Virus record (IMG/VR): IMGVR_UViG_3300027782_003601
Location: 62,001 to 126,000 of that record
Reading direction: 5' to 3' (one strand)
Length of the DNA stretch: 64,000 bases
Source: a virus
Made by a program: the position numbers and the translations under genes
In this document: positions 36,421-47,068 of the stretch, piece after piece
Layout of the letters: every line of letters starts with the position of its first letter
How positions within the stretch are numbered: the stretch's first letter is position 1
The notes under the pieces: generated by a model
What the model was told of the DNA's origin: nothing
The model's input: only the letters and a program-made list of their open reading frames with translations
Databases searched by the model: none

Positions 36421-39400
36421 ATGAAATTAGAAGTAGATAAACCAGAGGTAAAAAAATTAGTAGTAGTATACTCGGGTCGTTTCCAACCATTCCATGCTGG
36501 GCACTATGTATCCTATTTAAAACTTTGTCAAAAATTTGGCAAAGATAATGTATATATTGCAACATCAAACGTAACATCTGGTCCAAAATCTCCATTTAAT
36601 TTTAACGAAAAAAAGGAAATTGCAACTAAAATGTTCAATGTTCCATCTGATAAATTTATAGAAGTTAAAAACCCATATGCTCCTAAAGAAATATTACAAC
36701 ATTTTGATGGAAAAACTACTGCTTATATTGCAGCAGTTGGGGAAAAAGATGAAAGTAGATTAACTGGTAAATATTTTAAACCATATAAAGGTAAAACTGG
36801 ATATGGATATGATGAGATAGGATATACATACGCAGTTCCTGCCGAATCAAACCCAATTAGTGGAACGGATGTTCGTAATTGGTTAGGTAGTGGAGATGAT
36901 GAATCTAAAAAGAAAAGATTCTTAAAAGCATATCCAAAGTTTAATGCAGATATTTTTAAAATGATAACAAACAAATTAAATGAAGATGGATTTCCTGGAG
37001 GAATCGGTACTGGTTTAGATTTACCAGGAGGATATATTAATGGTGCACCAACGGGTTCAACAAACGAATCAAATAATACTCACCCATCTTCAGAATTTAG
37101 AAAAGAACCACATCCAACAAGATATGAAACAGAACATCCATCGGATGAACCTGATTGGTATAAAACTGAAAATTTATATGACCCAATTGGAAATGTAATT
37201 GATAGAGTTGTTGCTGAAGAAATATTTAAAGAATTTTCTAAACAATATTTTGGTGAAGCTCCTAATCCTATAATGGATAAGGAGTTTGATTATACTGCTG
37301 CAGATGGTAAAAAGAAAAAAATTACTGTTAAAGGTGCATTAAGATTACCAAAAGAACATCCTGCACACGTTCAAGCTTCCAAATTAGTTGGTAGTGATAA
37401 AACATCTGCAATAGCAAAAGGACCAGAGGATGCTCCTGCAAACGAACCAAAAAAATTACCACAACAAGGAAAAGCTGCAAAACAAGCAGCAAAACCTGCT
37501 CAACCTGGACAACCAGTTAAGCAAGGTCAGACTCAACAAGGTAAAGCAGATAAGGCAACGGGAAAATCCACAACATCCACACCACAAGGAGCAGAACAAA
37601 CTCCACCTCCACAAACATTAAGTGGTGATGAATTAAAATCATCAGCTGAAAAGAAAAAAGATACAAACAAAAGTGTATTTGGAAAATGGGGTGATAGATT
37701 TAAACAAGAAGTTAAAGAAATTGGAGATACTATTAAAACATTTTTGGATGAAGATGAAGCTCATATAGCACATGAAGGACATGACCCGAATTCTCCAATA
37801 AGAAAAAAAATCACAGAAAAACTTACTGATTTTGTAGCAAAAATGCCTGCAAATGTTGCAAAGCATGTATTAAAAGTTGCAAAACAAAAAGTACATCAAT
37901 TAAAAAATACAGGTAGAGGTATTCAATCATTGGCAGTATCTGCAATGAAAGGTGAAAAACCTAAATTTGGTATGTATAAAAATAGAGATGGTAAATGGCA
38001 ACATAGTGAAAATGAAGCTAAAAGACAAAAGAAGGCATTTATAGATACTGGAAAAGATATTGCATTAACTGCGGCAGCAGTAGTAACCGCAGGTGCAATT
38101 TCGGGAGCAGTAGCAGGTGCAGCTCATGGAATTGGTGGAATTGCACATGGCGCAGCTCATGGAGCAACACATACATTATCTCATGGGGTAAGTGGATTTT
38201 TACATCATATGGCAGTTGATTTTGGAAAACATTGTTTTAAAGAATCTGTATTTTTAGCAACTGGCGCAGGACATACTCAAGCAGCTAATTTAGCTATGGG
38301 AGCGGGTTTAATTGGTGAAAATATTTGGAAAAATACAATCAATGAAGAAGATGATATTAAACAAAATACATCAATGTATACCGAATTATTGAAACAAACT
38401 TTGGAAAAAATGGAAACGTTTGAACCAAATCCAACTCAATATTTGGAAATGCTAAAATCATATGCGGCAACTAAACAAAAAGCAGATTTGCAAAAATTAG
38501 TAGGTCCTATGAATGAAGTAATTTCTCCATTAAAAAGAGAAAACGTAAATCATTTTGTAGAATACGCAACTAAACGATTAAAATTAAAAGAACAACCAAA
38601 AGTAACATTAATAGAAGACCCTGAGTTTTCAAAACAAAATCATTCATTAGGAGGATACAATGTTGATTCTAAAGAAATATTTGTAGCAACTGAAGGTAGA
38701 TTAACTGCGGATATTTTAAGAACTATTGCACATGAAATGGTTCATAGAAAGCAAGATGAAATGGGATTGATTGGTGATTCAGTAAAAGATGGTGCAGATG
38801 GTTCTCCAATAGAAAATAAAGCAAATTCAATAGCAGCAATATTACTAAGAGAATATGGTAAATTAAATAAAACAATTTACAATGAAGATATTAATATAGA
38901 TGTTGATAAGGGTGATACTGTTTTAATGGGTAAATTTAAAAACAAAAAAGTAGTAGCAAAAGACTTTGGAACTGATGACCATGGAATGCCAACAATCAAT
39001 GGTAAAGTTGCAACCACATTTAGAATACCAAGAGGAGAAGAAAAACCAGATTCACAATCCGTATTTGATGAAGTAACTACAAACGATTGGCATTTTAAAG
39101 CAATTATGGCTTTATATGATAAATCAAATTCATTTGGTAAAAAGAAAATAGCAGCAGCAGTTTGTTCAGACCCAAATGCAAATAGAAAAGATATTGTAGT
39201 TCAATTGAGAGATTCGGATTATCAAGAAGTAACTGCTATTACTGATAAATTAAGATTATCAGAATATATTGAAAAAAAAAAATTAAATGAAATTGAAGCT
39301 AAAACTAAAGGATTAGGTGGAACTAATCCAAATGATTACGAAACAAAAGCTGAAAAAGATTTTAATAAACACCATAGTATAGATATGTACACAAATTCAT

Positions 39401-40962
39401 TAGGTACTTTAGATAAAGATACTGTTGATTTTGATGATGGTGGTGTTGATGTTGGATTTGTTCCATATAATTCAAAAAAAGATAAAATAAAAAGAGGTTA
39501 TGAGCCTGTTAAAACTGAAAAACTAACACAATCTAATTTAGATAGTGTTGAAAAATATGCAGATAGAGAATTAAAACCTGCTGATATAGAGTTTAGTAAT
39601 CATTTTTTTGATAGAGTTAATGATACTCGTAATGGTAAAGAAATATCTGAACCAGAACTAACTGGTTTTTTTAAGAGATTAATACGCCACAAAAAACAAT
39701 TTATAGATTTTTTAGATAAATACAATCAAATCGTAGTTAAAGACGATAGAAGTAATATCAATATTCCATTTGCAAAGATGGCAAATAAAGTTATTGCCAA
39801 AACTATAATGAGAAAAAATGATTTTCAAACCACTTCTCCTACAATCGTAAATGAAGTAGGTGAGGGTTCATCAAAGCCATATTCTTTTACTCAAAAAAGA
39901 AACGAAAAAAATAATAAAATTTACTCATTTACTACCACTTCAAATGAAGATTATAGAGTTGAGTTTGATTATAAAGATAAGTTTGATGCTTGGGAGGTAT
40001 CATTTGCTACATATTTTGATTCAGATGATGCAGTTATAAATAAAGGAGAACTATACTCTGTAATGGCAACTATAACAAATATATCATTAGATTTTATTAA
40101 AAAAGTAAATCCTAAAACAGTATATTTTTCATCTTCAAAAAATTTTGATAATGATAATAGACGTGAAAAACTTTATTTGGCTTATATAAAAAAACAACTC
40201 CCTAATTGGAAATTGGGTAAAAACTCTGGTTTTACTACATTGACTAACCCTAAATATAATAATCAACCAAAGTTTGATTGGTTAAAACAACCAATAAATG
40301 AAATTACACAAGGTTTGTATGCAGGTAAAATTAAAATTGGTGGACAATCAGTTGATATTGAAGTAGAATTATTAGGAGCTGACAATAAAACAAAAGAGTT
40401 TTTAACAAAGATAATTCACATAGATAAAGAATATCAGAACAAATTACCTATTGGTTCTCAATTCAAAATACCAGCAAGAGTATTTAGAATGCCAGGTGGT
40501 GGATGGCACAAAATTAAATCATCCGCATTTAAAGAATCATTAAATGAGGGCGGAGCATATGGACATATGTCTCATCCGTTTGATGATATGAATTTAACTT
40601 TTGGTGATTTAAAAAATATAATCACAAATGCATTAACTGGTAATTTAGAATTGACAAGAGAAAAATGTATAGCTGGTGATACTATAATACATACTGAAAA
40701 AAATGGTGATATGACTATTGCAAAGTTTGTAGATAATAAATTAGTTGATAAAGTATTGTCATTTAATGAAGAAACCAAACAAAATGAATATATGGATGTT
40801 ATGTTATCTTTTAATAATGATATTTCAGATGATTGGTTGGAAATTGAATTAGAGGATGGAAAAACTATACAAGTAACTCCGAATCATAGAATGTATGTAG
40901 AAGGAATTGGATATGTTGAAGCAAAACATTTGACAAAAGATATGGAGTTAAAAATAATCTAA
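36421..40962 (+). CDS. Giant multidomain protein, N-terminal part: nucleotidylyltransferase + HExxH + ligase N-extein + split-intein N half
   Basis: 1513 residues. Residues 10-180 are a cytidylyltransferase/NMN-adenylyltransferase-like domain: VVYSGRFQPFHAGH (His25, Gly27, His28) and ISGTDVRNW near 146-154. A Pro/Gln/Lys linker (about 330-410) and an Ala/His-rich hydrophobic stretch (about 560-620) follow, then AHEMVHRKQDEMG with HExxH at 771-775, typical of zinc peptidases. Residues about 1040-1180 carry the FSNHFFDRVNDTRNGKEI motif common in phage polyproteins. Residues 1380-1415 (YGHMSHPFDDMNLTFGDLKN, then LTREK) are the start of a ligase-like nucleotidyltransferase whose presumed active-site Lys1415 is the last extein residue. 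Residues 1416-1513 are an intein N half. It needs trans-splicing with the product at 41742 to complete the ligase-like domain. Confidence 0.85.
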   Translation: MKLEVDKPEVKKLVVVYSGRFQPFHAGHYVSYLKLCQKFGKDNVYIATSNVTSGPKSPFNFNEKKEIATKMFNVPSDKFIEVKNPYAPKEILQHFDGKTTAYIAAVGEKDESRLTGKYFKPYKGKTGYGYDEIGYTYAVPAESNPISGTDVRNWLGSGDDESKKKRFLKAYPKFNADIFKMITNKLNEDGFPGGIGTGLDLPGGYINGAPTGSTNESNNTHPSSEFRKEPHPTRYETEHPSDEPDWYKTENLYDPIGNVIDRVVAEEIFKEFSKQYFGEAPNPIMDKEFDYTAADGKKKKITVKGALRLPKEHPAHVQASKLVGSDKTSAIAKGPEDAPANEPKKLPQQGKAAKQAAKPAQPGQPVKQGQTQQGKADKATGKSTTSTPQGAEQTPPPQTLSGDELKSSAEKKKDTNKSVFGKWGDRFKQEVKEIGDTIKTFLDEDEAHIAHEGHDPNSPIRKKITEKLTDFVAKMPANVAKHVLKVAKQKVHQLKNTGRGIQSLAVSAMKGEKPKFGMYKNRDGKWQHSENEAKRQKKAFIDTGKDIALTAAAVVTAGAISGAVAGAAHGIGGIAHGAAHGATHTLSHGVSGFLHHMAVDFGKHCFKESVFLATGAGHTQAANLAMGAGLIGENIWKNTINEEDDIKQNTSMYTELLKQTLEKMETFEPNPTQYLEMLKSYAATKQKADLQKLVGPMNEVISPLKRENVNHFVEYATKRLKLKEQPKVTLIEDPEFSKQNHSLGGYNVDSKEIFVATEGRLTADILRTIAHEMVHRKQDEMGLIGDSVKDGADGSPIENKANSIAAILLREYGKLNKTIYNEDINIDVDKGDTVLMGKFKNKKVVAKDFGTDDHGMPTINGKVATTFRIPRGEEKPDSQSVFDEVTTNDWHFKAIMALYDKSNSFGKKKIAAAVCSDPNANRKDIVVQLRDSDYQEVTAITDKLRLSEYIEKKKLNEIEAKTKGLGGTNPNDYETKAEKDFNKHHSIDMYTNSLGTLDKDTVDFDDGGVDVGFVPYNSKKDKIKRGYEPVKTEKLTQSNLDSVEKYADRELKPADIEFSNHFFDRVNDTRNGKEISEPELTGFFKRLIRHKKQFIDFLDKYNQIVVKDDRSNINIPFAKMANKVIAKTIMRKNDFQTTSPTIVNEVGEGSSKPYSFTQKRNEKNNKIYSFTTTSNEDYRVEFDYKDKFDAWEVSFATYFDSDDAVINKGELYSVMATITNISLDFIKKVNPKTVYFSSSKNFDNDNRREKLYLAYIKKQLPNWKLGKNSGFTTLTNPKYNNQPKFDWLKQPINEITQGLYAGKIKIGGQSVDIEVELLGADNKTKEFLTKIIHIDKEYQNKLPIGSQFKIPARVFRMPGGGWHKIKSSAFKESLNEGGAYGHMSHPFDDMNLTFGDLKNIITNALTGNLELTREKCIAGDTIIHTEKNGDMTIAKFVDNKLVDKVLSFNEETKQNEYMDVMLSFNNDISDDWLEIELEDGKTIQVTPNHRMYVEGIGYVEAKHLTKDMELKII
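40666..40959 (+). other. Split intein 1, N-terminal half (IntN)
   Basis: Begins at Cys1416 with block A CIAGDTIIHTEKNGD and contains block B TIQVTPNHRMYVEG (the TxxH motif, His in NHR). The half is 98 residues, ending at a stop codon at 40960-40962, which is the usual split position after block B. The extein residue just before it is Lys1415. Confidence 0.88.
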
Positions 40963-40987
40963 CAACCATCAGTTTTTTCACAAAATT

Positions 40988-40997
40988 TATATTTATA
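40988..40997 (+). promoter_or_regulatory. Putative late promoter of homing endonuclease 1
   Basis: Perfect TATATTTATA, 20 nt before the ATG at 41018, inside the 55-nt gap after IntN. It would give the endonuclease its own late transcript. Confidence 0.65.
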
Positions 40998-41017
40998 TGT
41001 AAATAAAAACTATAAAT

Positions 41018-41752
41018 ATGATTGAAAAGTGTAAATATTGTGAAATAAAAATTAAAATTATTGGAAAAAATAGTATGAATGGACATATAACAAATTGTAA
41101 AAAATATAAAGAATGGAGAGATACTACTTTTAATTATGATTTTTTATATGATGCGTACATAGTAAATGGAAAGTCCGCATTACAAATTGCAAATGAAAAT
41201 GGGTGGAAATCATCTACTATAGTAAATAAACAATTGAATAGATTGGGTATAGCTGTTAGAAATGTTAAACAATCCCACCATATGTATGAGTATAAGTCTA
41301 GAATTGAAAAAACTAATTTTAAAAAATATGGAGCAGTAAATCCATTAAGTAAAGGAACTGTATCATATGAAAAACGAAATAAAACAGTTAAAGAAAAATA
41401 CGGAGTTGATAATGTATTTCAACATATGGATGTTAAAGAAAAAATAAGAAATTCTGGAGCATTCAAATCATTATTTCCAAACTATAATATAAATTCTATA
41501 CGAATTATAGAAGAGTATGGTAAGAAATATGGATATAATTTTCAACATGCCGAAAATGGGGGAGAATATTTTGTAAATGGGCTTGGATATTATTTGGATG
41601 GGTATGATAAAGAAAAAAATGTAGTAATTGAAATAGATGAATCCCATCATTTTAATAAAGATGGTTCACTTAAACAAAAAGATATAATACGTCAACAAAA
41701 AATAGAAGAATTATTACTATGTAAATTTATTAGAATAAAATATGAGAATTAA
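41018..41752 (+). CDS. Homing endonuclease 1 (Vsr/EDxHD-type), inside fractured ligase-like gene
   Basis: 244 residues. N-terminal zinc-finger-like motif (CKYCEIKIK with HITNCKK), then a helix-turn-helix ALQIANENGWKSSTIVNKQL and NUMOD-like segments with KYGAVNPLSKG and EKYGVDNVFQHM that contact DNA. The nuclease core is at about 165-244: RIIEEYGKKYGYNFQHAENG, GYYLDGYDKEKNVVIEIDES then HHFNKDG, consistent with an EDxHD catalytic set (Glu/Asp/His residues in the LDGYD and EIDExHH motifs). Its last 75 residues are clearly homologous to endonuclease 2 at 45154, while the N-termini differ. It is flanked by the two halves of a split intein, with the intein C-half ATG inside its last codons. Confidence 0.82.
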   Translation: MIEKCKYCEIKIKIIGKNSMNGHITNCKKYKEWRDTTFNYDFLYDAYIVNGKSALQIANENGWKSSTIVNKQLNRLGIAVRNVKQSHHMYEYKSRIEKTNFKKYGAVNPLSKGTVSYEKRNKTVKEKYGVDNVFQHMDVKEKIRNSGAFKSLFPNYNINSIRIIEEYGKKYGYNFQHAENGGEYFVNGLGYYLDGYDKEKNVVIEIDESHHFNKDGSLKQKDIIRQQKIEELLLCKFIRIKYEN

Positions 41753-41846
41753 ATCTATAAAAAAAATAAATAAAGAGCAAAACAGATATGATTTAAAAGT
41801 AGATGGGTTTTCATGCTACTATGCAAATGATATATTAGTTCATAAT
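41742..41846 (+). other. Split intein 1, C-terminal half (IntC)
   Basis: 35 residues from MRIKSIKKINKEQNRYDL to DILVHN, with block F (NRYDLKVDG) and block G (ANDILVHN, terminal Asn35 preceded by His34). The next residue Thr36 is the +1 nucleophile. The ATG overlaps the endonuclease 1 stop by 11 nt. Confidence 0.88.
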
Positions 41847-42887
41847 ACGGATGGGCAAGCTCTTGCAATTAGTTGGAAAAATGGTAGATTAATTGCAGCA
41901 AGAAACAAATCACATTTACAAAATGCAGGAGTAGGTGCTATGGGTATTGAAGATGTTGCATCAAAGTTTGCAGGTAGAGGTGGATTAACTGATGCTTACA
42001 ACTTTGCAATGAAAGATTTATCAGCAGCAATTCAATCTCTTTCAGAACCACAGAGAAAAAAAATATTTAACGAAGGACAGTGTTTTATGAATTTAGAGGT
42101 TATATGGCCTACATCGGTAAATGTAATACCTTATGGACAACCACTATTAGTATTTCACAATACAACTTGTTATGATGAGAAAGGTGTAGCAATCGGAGCA
42201 AATCAAGGAGCAGCAACAATGTTGGCAGGAATGATTAAACAAGTAAATGGAGATGTTCAATCTAAATATACAATTCAAGGACCTCCTGTAACAAAATTAC
42301 CAAATAATGAAGAATTGAGTTCTAAGCAAAGTAAATATTTAACACAACTACAAAAATTACAATTTCAATTTCAATTAAGTAATAAAGATGGTGTAGCAGA
42401 TTATCATCGTGCTTGGTGGGCAAACTTCATAGATAAGAGTAAAGTTAAGTTACAAAAATTAGAAAGAGATGCTTTAATTAACAGATGGGCATTTGGTGAT
42501 AAATCATTGCGTTTAAATACTATTACTGATAAAGATGCTCAAAAATGGGCAATGGATAATGATAAAGTAAATGTGGCAAACCAACAAAAAGAAAATATCA
42601 GACCATTTGAGGAAATATTTTTAGGAGTTGGAGCAGATGTTTTATCATTTATGGATTCAGTATTAACTGTAAATCCAAATGCAGCAGTTGCTAATATGAA
42701 ACAAAGATTAAAAGATACTGCTGATAAGGTAAGAGGTAGTGGAGATGTATCTAAAATAGAAAAATTAAAGAAAGAATTAGCAAGATTACAATCAATTGGT
42801 GGATTGGATAAGATAGTTCCAAATGAGGGTATTGTATTTATTTATAAAGGAAACACTTATAAACTTACAGGAACTTTTGCACCTTAA
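41742..42887 (+). CDS. Ligase-like protein, C-terminal part preceded by split-intein C half
   Basis: 381 residues. Residues 1-35 are the intein C half (see separate entry), Thr36 is the +1 residue. The extein begins TDGQALAISWKNGRLIAARN; joined to the LTREK end of the 36421 product it forms EKTDGQ, the KxDG motif I of ATP-dependent ligases and related nucleotidyltransferases. Downstream are an IEDVASKFAGRGGL segment, the FMNLEVIWPTSVNVIPYGQP motif (III-like), and NEGIVFIYKGNTYKLTGTF at the end (motifs IV/V, EGIVF and YKLTG). It is therefore a ligase-like adenylyl-transfer domain whose activity depends on splicing. RNA or DNA ligase specificity cannot be told from sequence. Confidence 0.85.
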   Translation: MRIKSIKKINKEQNRYDLKVDGFSCYYANDILVHNTDGQALAISWKNGRLIAARNKSHLQNAGVGAMGIEDVASKFAGRGGLTDAYNFAMKDLSAAIQSLSEPQRKKIFNEGQCFMNLEVIWPTSVNVIPYGQPLLVFHNTTCYDEKGVAIGANQGAATMLAGMIKQVNGDVQSKYTIQGPPVTKLPNNEELSSKQSKYLTQLQKLQFQFQLSNKDGVADYHRAWWANFIDKSKVKLQKLERDALINRWAFGDKSLRLNTITDKDAQKWAMDNDKVNVANQQKENIRPFEEIFLGVGADVLSFMDSVLTVNPNAAVANMKQRLKDTADKVRGSGDVSKIEKLKKELARLQSIGGLDKIVPNEGIVFIYKGNTYKLTGTFAP

Positions 42888-42919
42888 ATCAGATTTTAGG
42901 TATTTTTTACGAATAGTTT

Positions 42920-42929
42920 GATATATATA
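42920..42929 (+). promoter_or_regulatory. Putative late promoter variant GATATATATA
   Basis: Deviates from the box at two positions, 31 nt before the ATG at 42961. Low confidence because AT runs are frequent here. Confidence 0.35.
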
Positions 42930-44260: not shown

Positions 44261-45115
44261 ATGGCAGTTCAAGGGCAACCTAAAAAATCTCTTAAAGAGA
44301 TAATTGCAGAAGAATATCGTAAATGTGGATTAGACCCAATTTACTTTATGAAAAAATATTGTGTTATCCAACACCCAACAAGAGGTAAAATACCTTTCCA
44401 CCTATATCCGTTTCAGGAAAATTGTTTAACAGACTTTAAAGAAAATCGTTTCAACATTATTCTTAAATCCCGTCAATTGGGTTTATCAACCCTTTCTGCG
44501 GGTTTTATTTTGTGGAAAATGTTGTTTAACGAAGATTTCAATGCATTGGTTATTGCAACTAAAGTAACAGTAGCAAAAAACTTAGTAGAGAAAGTAAGAG
44601 TAATGCACGATTTACTACCCGTATGGTTAAGAGATGGTGGGAACTCTTCGGTTGAAGATAACAAACTATCACTTAAACTAAAGAACGGTTCTCAGGTTAA
44701 AGCAATTGCATCCTCACCCGATGCAGGACGTTCGGAAGCCCTATCCCTATTAGTAGTGGATGAGGCAGCATTCATTAGAGATATTGATGAAATTTGGTTA
44801 TCCGCACAATCAACTCTATCAACGGGTGGTAGTGCAATTGTATTATCAACTCCAAATGGTGTGGGTAACTGGTTTCACAAAATGTGGGTAGAAGGGGAAA
44901 GTGGTGCAAATGGATTTAATCCTATAAATCTCCATTGGACAGTTCATCCAGAAAGAAATCAAAATTGGAGAGATGAACAAACTCGTATTTTGGGAGCAAA
45001 AGGAGCAGCACAAGAATGTGATTGTTTGTGGGGTGAATCCAAAGTTCAAGTTAAAAACCTAGAAACGATGGAAATAGACCATTATACTTTGGAACAATTG
45101 TATGATATTTTATAA
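44261..45115 (+). CDS. terL: Terminase large subunit, N-terminal ATPase part + split-intein N half
   Basis: 284 residues. The packaging ATPase fold is visible: adenine-binding segment HLYPFQENCL (47-56), Walker A-like SRQLGLST (70-77), where the usual Lys is Leu, Walker B LSLLVVDEAAF (Asp167, Glu168), and coupling motif VLSTPNG. It ends GAAQECD at residue 254, and residues 255-284 (CLWGESKVQVKNLETMEIDH and 10 more) are an intein N half of only 30 residues. The C-terminal nuclease half is encoded at 45878-47068, so the full enzyme requires trans-splicing. In T4-like phages gp17 is one chain. The gene begins 1 nt after the previous stop. Confidence 0.92.
   Translation: MAVQGQPKKSLKEIIAEEYRKCGLDPIYFMKKYCVIQHPTRGKIPFHLYPFQENCLTDFKENRFNIILKSRQLGLSTLSAGFILWKMLFNEDFNALVIATKVTVAKNLVEKVRVMHDLLPVWLRDGGNSSVEDNKLSLKLKNGSQVKAIASSPDAGRSEALSLLVVDEAAFIRDIDEIWLSAQSTLSTGGSAIVLSTPNGVGNWFHKMWVEGESGANGFNPINLHWTVHPERNQNWRDEQTRILGAKGAAQECDCLWGESKVQVKNLETMEIDHYTLEQLYDIL
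45023..45112 (+). other. Split intein 2, short N-terminal half (IntN)
   Basis: 30 residues from Cys255 with block A CLWGESKVQV; block B is not here but in the C half. This is the atypical early split (N half about 25-35 residues) known from terminase split inteins such as AceL-TerL. Confidence 0.85.
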
Positions 45116-45129: not shown

Positions 45130-45153
45130 CGCAAGAATGCGATTGTGGAAAAT

Positions 45154-45888
45154 ATGAACTATGTAACAGAAGGCTGGCAAAAAATAAAAAAATCAATAGA
45201 AATTATTGATAAAATTTATTCATTTGATGAAACTAAAACTTTATTATTAAATGAGTATTATTATGAAAATTATTTTGGAAAAGCTAAAAATAGAACTTTA
45301 ATAAACGATAATCCAAAACTATATAAATCAATATATTATCATAGTAGTATTTTAGAAGATACTATGAAAAATCACAACAGATATAAGGGATGGTATAATT
45401 TTAAATTTAGATTAAAATTTATAGCTGAAATTGATGGTAATATAAATAAATTAAAATGCAATTGTGGAAAAACATATACATGGAATGTTTATTGTAGAAG
45501 TTGTCCTGAATATCACAAAACTTGGTTAGGTAAGAATCATACCGATGATACTAAAAAACTAATGAGAGTATCCACAATTAAGTATTTAGATAAAACTAAT
45601 GGACAACTAGCACCGAGATATAATATAAATTCAATACCAATAATAGAGGAATACGGAAAAATCAATGGATATAATTTTCAGCATGCAGAAAATGGTGGTG
45701 AATACCATATCAAAGAATTGGGTTATTTTTTAGATGGATATGATGTTGAAAAAAATGTAGTTATTGAAATAGATGAAAGGCATCATTTTGATTCAAATGG
45801 TAAATTGAAAAAAAAAGATATAAAAAGAGAGCAGGAAATAACCAAATTATTAAAATGTGATTTTATACGGATAAAATATGAAAACTGA
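45154..45888 (+). CDS. Homing endonuclease 2 (Vsr/EDxHD-type), inside fractured terminase gene
   Basis: 244 residues from the ATG at 45154 (an upstream GTG at 45145 would add three). The N-terminal half differs from endonuclease 1 and has a Cys4-like finger (CNCGKTYTWNVYCRSC, about 102-117) and a TWLGKNHTDDTKKLM motif. The nuclease core is close to that of endonuclease 1: PIIEEYGKINGYNFQHAENG, GYFLDGYDVEKNVVIEIDER, HHFDSNG, and the same ending FIRIKYEN. The two enzymes have equal length and the same final residues. The ATG of the intein C half lies inside its last codons, giving an 11-nt overlap. Confidence 0.82.
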   Translation: MNYVTEGWQKIKKSIEIIDKIYSFDETKTLLLNEYYYENYFGKAKNRTLINDNPKLYKSIYYHSSILEDTMKNHNRYKGWYNFKFRLKFIAEIDGNINKLKCNCGKTYTWNVYCRSCPEYHKTWLGKNHTDDTKKLMRVSTIKYLDKTNGQLAPRYNINSIPIIEEYGKINGYNFQHAENGGEYHIKELGYFLDGYDVEKNVVIEIDERHHFDSNGKLKKKDIKREQEITKLLKCDFIRIKYEN

Positions 45889-46222
45889 TTATATATTAAA
45901 ACTTAATACTAAATACGAAATAATGACTCCAAATGGTTATAAATCATTTGGTGGTATTCGTAAATTAATAAAAAGTGATTATTATGAAATACACTTATCA
46001 AACGGATATAAATTAAAATGTTCTATAAACCATAAATTTATAAAAGATGGCGTTGAAATAGTAATCAATGATATAAATGTTGGTGATTATATTGATGGTG
46101 ATGATAATAAAAAAGTTGTCATACAAATTAAGGAATATAAAACAAAAGATATTACATTATTTGATATTGTAGAAGTAGATGGTGGTAATATATTTAATGT
46201 TGATGGTGTAGTTTCTCATAAT
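45878..46222 (+). other. Split intein 2, long C-terminal half (IntC)
   Basis: 115 residues containing block B (KCSINHKFIKDG, TxxH-type with His52), a NVGDYI segment and the F/G blocks TLFDIVEVDGGNIFNV and VVSHN (His114, Asn115). Together with the 30-residue N half it makes a 145-residue mini-intein lacking an internal endonuclease. Confidence 0.87.
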
Positions 46223-47068
46223 TGTGATTTTGTTGGTTCTGGAGATACCGTAATAGACCCGGAATTATTAACTTGGTATAAGAACACATATGTAATGGAA
46301 CCTGTTGAAAAAGCAGGGTTTGATAGAAACCTATGGAAATGGGAATATCCAAATTACAACAAACAATATATGGTTATAGCTGACGTTGCAAGAGGAGATG
46401 CAGCCGATTATTCTACTGCACAAGTTTTAGATATTGAAGATTGTTCGCAAGTTGCCGAATATAGAGGAATGATTGATACCAAAGATTTTGGAAACTTTCT
46501 TACTGCATTAGCAACCGAATATAATAATGCACTTTTAGTAGTGGAAAATTCAAACGTAGGTTGGGCATGTATTCAACAAGTAATAGATAGAGGATATCAA
46601 AATTTATTTTATATGAGTAATGATTTAAAATATATTGATGTTGAAAGACAAATGAGTAATAGGTTTTACAGAGATGAAAGGCAAATGGTTGCAGGATTTT
46701 CAACAACAACAAAAACACGTCCTCTTATTATTTCAGCATTAGACACTTATATGAGTGAGAAAGATATTCTTATTCGTAGTGGTAGATTAATAGATGAAAT
46801 GTTTACATTTATTTGGCAAAATGGTAGAGCAGAAGCAATGAAGGGATATAATGATGACTTAATTATGGCATTAGCAATTGGATTATGGGTTCGTAATACT
46901 GCACTTCGTTTAAGACAAGAAGGAATAGATTTAACCAAAAATATGTTAAATTCTGCACACGTTGCTAAATATAGTGGAATGATTACAACAGGTCATTTAA
47001 ATAGTAATCCATATGAAATGGAAGTGGGTAACAAAGAAATAGAAAATTTAACTTGGTTACTTCGTTAA
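45878..47068 (+). CDS. terL: Terminase large subunit, C-terminal nuclease part preceded by split-intein C half
   Basis: 396 residues: residues 1-115 are the intein C half, and Cys116 is the +1 residue. The extein (CDFVGSGDTVIDPELLTWYK onward) is the RNase H-like nuclease of gp17: YMVIADVARGDAADYSTAQV with the catalytic Asp, VVENSNVGWACIQQVID, and KGYNDDLIMALAIGLWV with the conserved DD. The joined protein would read GAAQECD-CDFVGSG at the splice site. Length of the ligated terminase would be about 535 residues (254 + 281), typical for gp17-like enzymes. Confidence 0.92.
   Translation: MKTDYILKLNTKYEIMTPNGYKSFGGIRKLIKSDYYEIHLSNGYKLKCSINHKFIKDGVEIVINDINVGDYIDGDDNKKVVIQIKEYKTKDITLFDIVEVDGGNIFNVDGVVSHNCDFVGSGDTVIDPELLTWYKNTYVMEPVEKAGFDRNLWKWEYPNYNKQYMVIADVARGDAADYSTAQVLDIEDCSQVAEYRGMIDTKDFGNFLTALATEYNNALLVVENSNVGWACIQQVIDRGYQNLFYMSNDLKYIDVERQMSNRFYRDERQMVAGFSTTTKTRPLIISALDTYMSEKDILIRSGRLIDEMFTFIWQNGRAEAMKGYNDDLIMALAIGLWVRNTALRLRQEGIDLTKNMLNSAHVAKYSGMITTGHLNSNPYEMEVGNKEIENLTWLLR

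What the first reader, a model, noticed from the sequence alone, without database searches (positions are those of the whole stretch)
40666..41846. Fractured ligase-like gene: split intein placed directly after the presumed catalytic lysine
The 36421 product ends as an intein N half (block A CIAGDT, block B TPNHR) and the 41742 product starts with an intein C half (ANDILVHN then Thr). The extein junction reads EK | TDGQ, i.e. the KxDG motif I of ATP-dependent ligases is cut right after the nucleophilic Lys. Until trans-splicing the enzyme cannot work, so the mobile element could act as a switch or delay. A free-standing endonuclease gene lies between the halves, matching the published 'fractured gene' arrangement of Dassa and co-workers (2009), here in a genome context and with a giant multidomain extein.
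Basis: partly seen in the sequence, partly recalled or inferred. Interest (0 to 1): 0.88.

Follow-up and report, generated by a model that had tools for sequence, protein, structure and literature searches.

The report
Phage split intein with self-targeting operator
A mobile protein-splicing element has broken a phage ligase-like gene in two exactly at its active-site lysine, and the DNA-cutting gene it carries has a small copy of its own target sequence next to its start, which probably lets the cutter switch itself off.

Summary
Window 36421-40962 ends in an intein N half (98 aa) and 41742-42887 begins with the C half (35 aa). They interrupt EK|TDGQ, which is contiguous in 76 of 79 relatives. 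A Vsr-like homing endonuclease gene (HEN) lies between. All relatives recovered with this intein have it at the same residue, usually with the HEN (lost in L070). The intein+HEN block is far more similar between phages than the flanking gene, so it moves as a cassette. Lys1415 sits at the motif I lysine of RNA/DNA ligases, by profile and (weakly) structural evidence. The same genome holds a second fractured gene, terminase (TerL), of AceL-TerL type; its HEN has a related nuclease domain and an unrelated DNA-binding domain.

It is inverted at the ligase and direct at TerL. The ligase copy is kept in six lineages, varying only at the wobble base of one codon. This matches the I-TevI autorepressor-operator design, not found described for split inteins in the papers searchable here. 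Binding and repression are inferred, not shown.

The parts
36421..40665 (+). N-extein, residues 1-1415: NMNAT/cytidylyltransferase-like domain, HExxH motif, ... ends TREK; Lys1415 = codon 40663-40665
   Evidence: contiguous with TDGQ in 76 relatives
40666..40962 (+). intein N half (98 aa + stop)
   Evidence: TIGR01445 E=1.4e-8; nearest solved NrdJ-1
40966..40979 (-). inverted copy of the joined homing site, GAAAAAACTGATGG (codons E K T D G): proposed operator
   Evidence: only match of GARAARACNGAYGG in 64 kb, expected 0.02; kept in all 10 ligase-type loci examined with a spacer over 40 nt
40990..40997 (+). TATTTATA, promoter-like element of the HEN gene
   Evidence: 9 of 20 + strand copies lie 11-32 nt upstream of ORF starts, p=1e-9
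41018..41752 (+). homing endonuclease gene (244 aa); C-terminal Vsr-like nuclease domain, about residues 157-242
   Evidence: phrog_3339/phrog_12131 homing endonuclease; I-Bth0305I 3r3p and Vsr among Foldseek matches, weak; invariant N,H,D,E,D,E,H,D,R
41742..41846 (+). intein C half (35 aa), start overlaps HEN stop by 11 nt
   Evidence: PF14890 E=5.6e-4; gp41-1 E=0.0055
41847..42887 (+). C-extein: TDGQ..., ARNK, NLEVI, EGIVF, YKLTG motifs of a ligase-like domain; last 10 aa missing in this copy
   Evidence: alignments A1, A3; AF2 model of uninterrupted homologue pLDDT 87.9
44261..45022 (+). second fractured gene: terminase large subunit N-extein, ends QECD
   Evidence: Terminase_6N E=3e-8; uninterrupted TerL in L070
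45023..45115 (+). short (30 aa) intein N fragment of TerL
   Evidence: size as in AceL-TerL/GOS-TerL (PMC11766414)
45122..45129 (+). TATTTATA, promoter-like element of the TerL HEN
45132..45147 (+). direct copy of the TerL homing site CAAGAATGCGATTGTG (15/16; codons Q E C D | C)
   Evidence: pattern CARGARTGYGAYTG: 2 in 64 kb (site and copy), expected 0.01
45154..45888 (+). TerL homing endonuclease; C-domain 73% identical in protein and 77% in DNA to the ligase HEN, N-domain unrelated
45878..46222 (+). TerL intein C fragment (115 aa), 11-nt overlap with HEN
   Evidence: PF14890 E=3.1e-6
46223..47068 (+). TerL C-extein
   Evidence: phrog_24361 terminase E=5.6e-17

Best explanation
This is a fractured gene: a mobile, naturally split, NrdJ-1/gp41-1-like intein inserted between the motif I lysine and the rest (TDGQ) of a phage ligase-like (covalent nucleotidyltransferase) domain. 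The cassette is [intein N half - stop - operator/promoter spacer - HEN - intein C half]. Steps: (1) the two halves are made as separate proteins, the C half by translation coupled to the HEN (11-nt overlap; inferred); (2) the intein halves associate and splice, restoring EKTDGQ (inferred from conserved catalytic residues and purifying selection); (3) the HEN cuts intein-less EK-TDGQ alleles and the whole cassette is copied in (movement shown by sequence, cutting inferred); (4) the HEN also binds a copy of its homing-site core beside its own promoter and limits its own expression, as I-TevI does (copy, position and conservation shown; binding and repression inferred). A second, unrelated split intein in the terminase gene of the same phage has the same design.
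For: Intein halves. Precise empty sites. Same insertion residue in all loci found with this intein family, with intact 244-304 aa HENs. Mobility: window vs L005 the cassette has 4/1181 mismatches and the flanks 49/1241 (p=8e-11); window vs L213 152/1181 against 417/1241 (p=3e-34); cassette dS below extein dS. Purifying selection on all parts: dN/dS mostly 0.1-0.3. HEN loss with the split intein kept and a HEN 3' remnant in L070. Lysine = motif I; ligases fill the top 23 PDB fold matches. Operator copy. Of 51 upstream regions, each joined site matches best upstream of its own HEN. Promoter-like element. Precedent: I-TevI operator, 15/20 identity to the homing site, over the late promoter (PMC2988022).
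Against: No experiment. Fold matches to ligases and to Vsr/I-Bth0305I are individually weak, and the PF09414 gathering score is not reached. The HEN of L242 has a 5-nt spacer without a copy. The fractured uvsW of CF-SP2 and the RNA polymerase gene of L243 show no site copy, so the operator is not universal. L070 has lost the HEN but keeps the copy, which may mean recent loss or another role. The lineages compared share ancestry, so counts are not independent. dS values are near saturation in distant pairs.
Confidence: 0.72

Rival explanations
1. The homing-site copies are scars of how each HEN entered the intein (a captured piece of its own target) and have no present function.
For: Orientation and position differ between cassettes; the HEN-less L070 still has its copy.
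Against: Ligase-type copies survive synonymous saturation elsewhere and vary only at the Thr wobble base; in several loci the copy matches the commonest empty-site allele (GAAAAAACCGATGG, 44 of 156) rather than the locus's own flank; two unrelated intein sites share the feature, each beside a promoter-like element.
Confidence: 0.2
2. The copies act in RNA: a hairpin hiding the HEN start, or an antisense pairing with the exon ends.
For: TerL group B loci have two inverted copies that fold into a hairpin (L240 z=-2.6; L235, L238 z about -1.6). I-TevI-type HENs also use RBS-hiding hairpins (PMC2988022).
Against: Ligase-type and TerL group A spacers fold no better than shuffles (z +0.7 to -1.4); no Rfam element or group I intron in the region; in L240 the inverted copy fits the homing site perfectly but its partner copy imperfectly.
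Confidence: 0.12
3. One reading: the split intein is a switch or delay for the ligase, of benefit to the phage.
For: If it is a ligase, the enzyme is inactive until splicing, and the C half probably depends on HEN-linked expression (11-nt overlap).
Against: 76 of 79 relatives lack the intein; cassette history is that of a mobile element; insertion at invariant residues is the usual intein habit; no sign of conditional splicing.
Confidence: 0.08
4. The extein is not an active ligase but a ligase-derived or unrelated structural protein, so the lysine is not a nucleophile.
For: Motif V reads YKLTG, without the second Lys of many ligases; a long helical insert separates motifs III and IV; no curated cut-off reached; Foldseek TM-scores are about 0.2.
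Against: E39, K40, D42, G43, A58, R59, E124, E367, G368 and K379 invariant in 51 relatives down to 32% identity; hhalign, Pfam and Foldseek all single out RNA ligases.
Confidence: 0.25

Closest known systems
Fractured genes with split inteins and Vsr-like HENs (Dassa et al. 2009, NAR 37:2560; known to me from memory and citations, not readable here)
   Same: Two-gene split extein, free-standing HEN between the halves, canonical split point, intein halves nearest NrdJ-1 and gp41-1, nuclease domain with 3r3p/1vsr among its fold matches
   Different: New extein (NMNAT-plus-ligase-like giant protein) and new site (after motif I Lys); two fractured genes in one genome sharing a HEN nuclease domain; homing-site copies upstream of the HENs
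AceL-TerL / GOS-TerL atypical split inteins
   Same: Terminase gene, very short N fragment (30 aa here; 25 and 37 aa there, PMC11766414)
   Different: Seen here with its HEN and upstream homing-site copy; known members were described mainly as splicing tools
I-TevI, I-TevII, I-TevIII operators of phage T4 (PMC2988022)
   Same: Homing-site-like sequence just upstream of the endonuclease gene and at its promoter
   Different: Those endonucleases are GIY-YIG or HNH and intron-encoded; here Vsr-like HENs of split inteins, and the I-TevI operator was proven by binding and repression assays
Phage KLEP7 intein-containing RNA ligase
   Same: Intein inside an RNA ligase active-site motif
   Different: Contiguous intein of about 360 aa inserted near motif III (GEWAG), not split and not at motif I

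Membership tests
Fractured gene (split intein + free-standing HEN) | N-extein+IN ORF, HEN ORF, IC+C-extein ORF in this order | tested here: met
Fractured gene (split intein + free-standing HEN) | Intact uninterrupted alleles with precise junction | tested here: met
Fractured gene (split intein + free-standing HEN) | HEN of the Vsr-like family | tested here: inconclusive
   I-Bth0305I 3r3p prob 0.84 and Vsr 1vsr prob 0.69 among Foldseek matches but E 0.24-0.5; weak DUF559/RAP/MTES_1575 hits
Split intein, class 1 | Cys1, block B TxxH, terminal HN, +1 C/S/T | tested here: met
   all 16 copies
Split intein, class 1 | Trans-splicing activity | not testable with these tools
   needs expression of the two halves
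ATP-dependent RNA/DNA ligase (covalent nucleotidyltransferase) | Motif I KxDG invariant | tested here: met
ATP-dependent RNA/DNA ligase (covalent nucleotidyltransferase) | Curated family cut-off (PF09414) reached | tested here: not met
   (best E 0.0021); therefore 'ligase-like', not filed as a member
ATP-dependent RNA/DNA ligase (covalent nucleotidyltransferase) | Nucleotidyltransferase fold | tested here: inconclusive
   ligases rank 1-23, E>=0.013, TM about 0.2
HEN autoregulated by homing-site-like operator (I-TevI type) | Homing-site-like sequence upstream of HEN at its promoter | tested here: met
   (promoter role of TATTTATA inferred)
HEN autoregulated by homing-site-like operator (I-TevI type) | Binding without cleavage and repression | not testable with these tools
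   needs gel shift, cleavage and reporter assays
AceL-TerL-type split intein | TerL host gene with short N fragment | tested here: met

The most novel reading that the evidence does not exclude
Homing endonucleases of split-intein 'fractured genes' regulate themselves through a built-in copy of their own homing-site core placed at their promoter. The feature evolved at least twice (ligase site inverted, terminase site direct or as an inverted pair), in step with a modular HEN whose nuclease domain is shared between two unrelated inteins of one phage.
Probability: 0.6. Interest if true: 0.72.

Novelty: new variant of a known kind. Interest (0 to 1): 0.62.

Why it matters
Fractured genes supply the fastest split inteins used in protein engineering, but how their endonucleases are expressed and controlled is, as far as I could find, unknown. 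A homing-site copy at the HEN promoter gives a directly testable answer and hands over the probable recognition core of each HEN (EK|TDG and QECD|C codons), which is otherwise hard to obtain. The ligase site adds a naturally tested split point after a catalytic lysine, and several diverged intein pairs as candidate splicing tools.

Tried and rejected
PDB sequence search with the extein profile and the HEN profile gave no real relative. T4 Rnl2 profile comparison put K on K35, but at P=0.013 only; the PF09414-type phage ligases did better. Group I intron or other RNA element for the reverse-complement-of-exon-junction motif: no Rfam match, so an intron guide sequence was rejected. TATAAATA (T4 late promoter) at 41011-41018 overlaps the HEN ATG, but the start-proximal element of this phage is TATTTATA. 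Site copies were not found in the fractured uvsW of CF-SP2 or the RNA polymerase gene of L243. With each locus's own 600-nt flanks as target, the junction was the top match in only some loci, because local codons differ at wobble positions; the codon-degenerate pattern test resolved this. Host: only three binned contigs with the extein, from three unrelated bacterial groups, so no host call. Dassa 2009 could not be read.

Full report
Observation. The giant ORF 36421-40962 ends in an intein N half starting at Cys1416 (codon 40666), and ORF 41742-42887 starts with a 35-aa C half ending HN before TDGQ. TIGR01445 scores above its cut-off (E=1.4e-8). The nearest solved inteins are NrdJ-1 (E=7e-7) and gp41-1 (E=0.0055). 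Of 79 relatives of the C-extein whose junction could be read, 76 have an uninterrupted EK-TDGQ; L004, L005 and the more distant L070 carry the C half.

The extein. An alignment of 51 uninterrupted homologues (down to 32% identity) keeps E39 K40 D42 G43, A58 R59, E124, E367 G368, K379; this is the order of nucleotidyltransferase motifs I, Ia, III, IV and V (motif names assigned by eye). PF09414 RNA_ligase is matched by 20 of 51 members (next family: 3), best E 0.0021, below its cut-off. hhalign against phage RNA ligases gives P=2.8e-4 with EK(T/L)DGQN on EKLDGxN; the reversed control gives 0.26. Against T4 Rnl2 the same lysine falls on K35, P=0.013. The AlphaFold model (pLDDT 87.9) has RNA/DNA ligases as the first 23 PDB matches, each weak. 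I therefore call it ligase-like and consider Lys1415 the probable nucleophile. A compact 640-aa relative in Microcystis phage Mel-JY01 has only the NMNAT-like and ligase-like parts (EKLDG).

The element family. Scans with the N half and with the HEN nuclease domain recovered ligase-type cassettes at the identical residue in L070, L211-L220, L226, L231, L232 and L242 (L211/L212 are the same contigs as L005/L004). HENs are intact; 11-nt overlaps with the C half recur (20 nt in L242). In L070 the HEN is gone, a piece of its 3' end remains before the C-half ATG, and the split is retained. Cassette versus flank: window/L005 4 of 1181 against 49 of 1241 mismatches; window/L213 152 of 1181 against 417 of 1241. 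dS falls in parallel (window/L213: extein 1.25, IN 0.48, HEN 0.55). So the whole split cassette moves between phages. dN/dS of IN, HEN and IC is mostly 0.1-0.3.

A second fractured gene. TerL is split at QECD|C with a 30-aa N fragment and a 115-aa C fragment (AceL-TerL type), again with a HEN whose end overlaps the C fragment by 11 nt. The two HENs share the C-terminal nuclease domain (73% protein, 77% DNA identity from the YNIN motif to the stop) while the N-terminal halves are unrelated. This points to a shared nuclease module with exchanged specificity parts.

Homing-site copies. The 55-nt spacer between the IN stop and the HEN start holds CCATCAGTTTTTTC, the reverse complement of GAAAAA|AC(N)GATGG, i.e. 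the joined, intein-less site. The codon-degenerate pattern GARAARACNGAYGG occurs once in the 64-kb window, there (expected 0.02). All 10 ligase-type loci examined with a spacer over 40 nt have it, inverted, always registered on -6 to +8 of the insertion point; chance per spacer is 1e-5 to 1e-7 by composition. Between lineages only the Thr wobble base differs. Several copies equal the commonest empty allele (44 of 156 sites) and not the locus's own codons. Upstream of the TerL HEN stands CAAGAATGCGATTGTG, a direct copy (15/16) of -12 to +4 of the TerL site. In relatives L281, L282, L283 and L233 the copy is kept at the same place; in L235, L237, L238 and L240 there is one copy in the tail of the N fragment and an inverted one after its stop, on both sides of TATTTATA or TATTTATC. 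Among 51 upstream regions in the window, each joined site fits best in front of its own HEN. TATTTATA is start-proximal in this phage: 9 of 20 + strand copies lie 11-32 nt before an ORF, p=1e-9; in non-coding DNA 13 copies on the + strand against 2 on the other.

Reading. T4 I-TevI has a homing-site-like operator (15/20) over its late promoter, binds both sites equally, cleaves the operator about 100-fold less and represses itself; I-TevII and I-TevIII have similar sequences (PMC2988022). The arrangement here is the same in form. Shown: copies, positions, conservation, promoter-like neighbour. Inferred: HEN binding, lack of cleavage, repression. RNA hairpins are not a common denominator, and no Rfam element was found. 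I found no description of such operators for split-intein HENs in the searchable papers, but Dassa et al. 2009 was not readable.

Verdict. Observation confirmed; fractured-gene reading right; catalytic-lysine placement likely; switch hypothesis unsupported. The most interesting part is the self-target copy at both HEN promoters.

Noticed in passing
window 42875-42925: The C-extein of this copy ends 10 aa early because of a one-base difference from L004, which is otherwise 99.9-100% identical around it; the lost tail holds an invariant Asn-Gln. Assembly error or recent variant; intact copies exist.
   Followed up: partly
L243 1500-6022: A third kind of fractured gene with a related HEN: RNA polymerase beta-prime split right after the catalytic NADFDGD motif; the C half appears to end in Asp, not Asn.
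   Followed up: partly
window 36421-40665: The N-extein combines an NMNAT-like domain (GRFQPFHAGH, ISGTDVR), a HExxH motif near residue 770 and the ligase-like domain; in Mel-JY01 phage only the first and last remain. An NMNAT-ligase fusion near the terminase genes may deserve its own study.
   Followed up: no
L070 9132-9959 and L233 1125-1952: GIY-YIG-like free-standing endonuclease genes directly beside the ligase/terminase genes in relatives.
   Followed up: no
L171 (Prevotella phage Lak-A2) 3001-3258: Vsr-like HEN domain directly upstream of a release factor 2 gene in a Lak megaphage.
   Followed up: no
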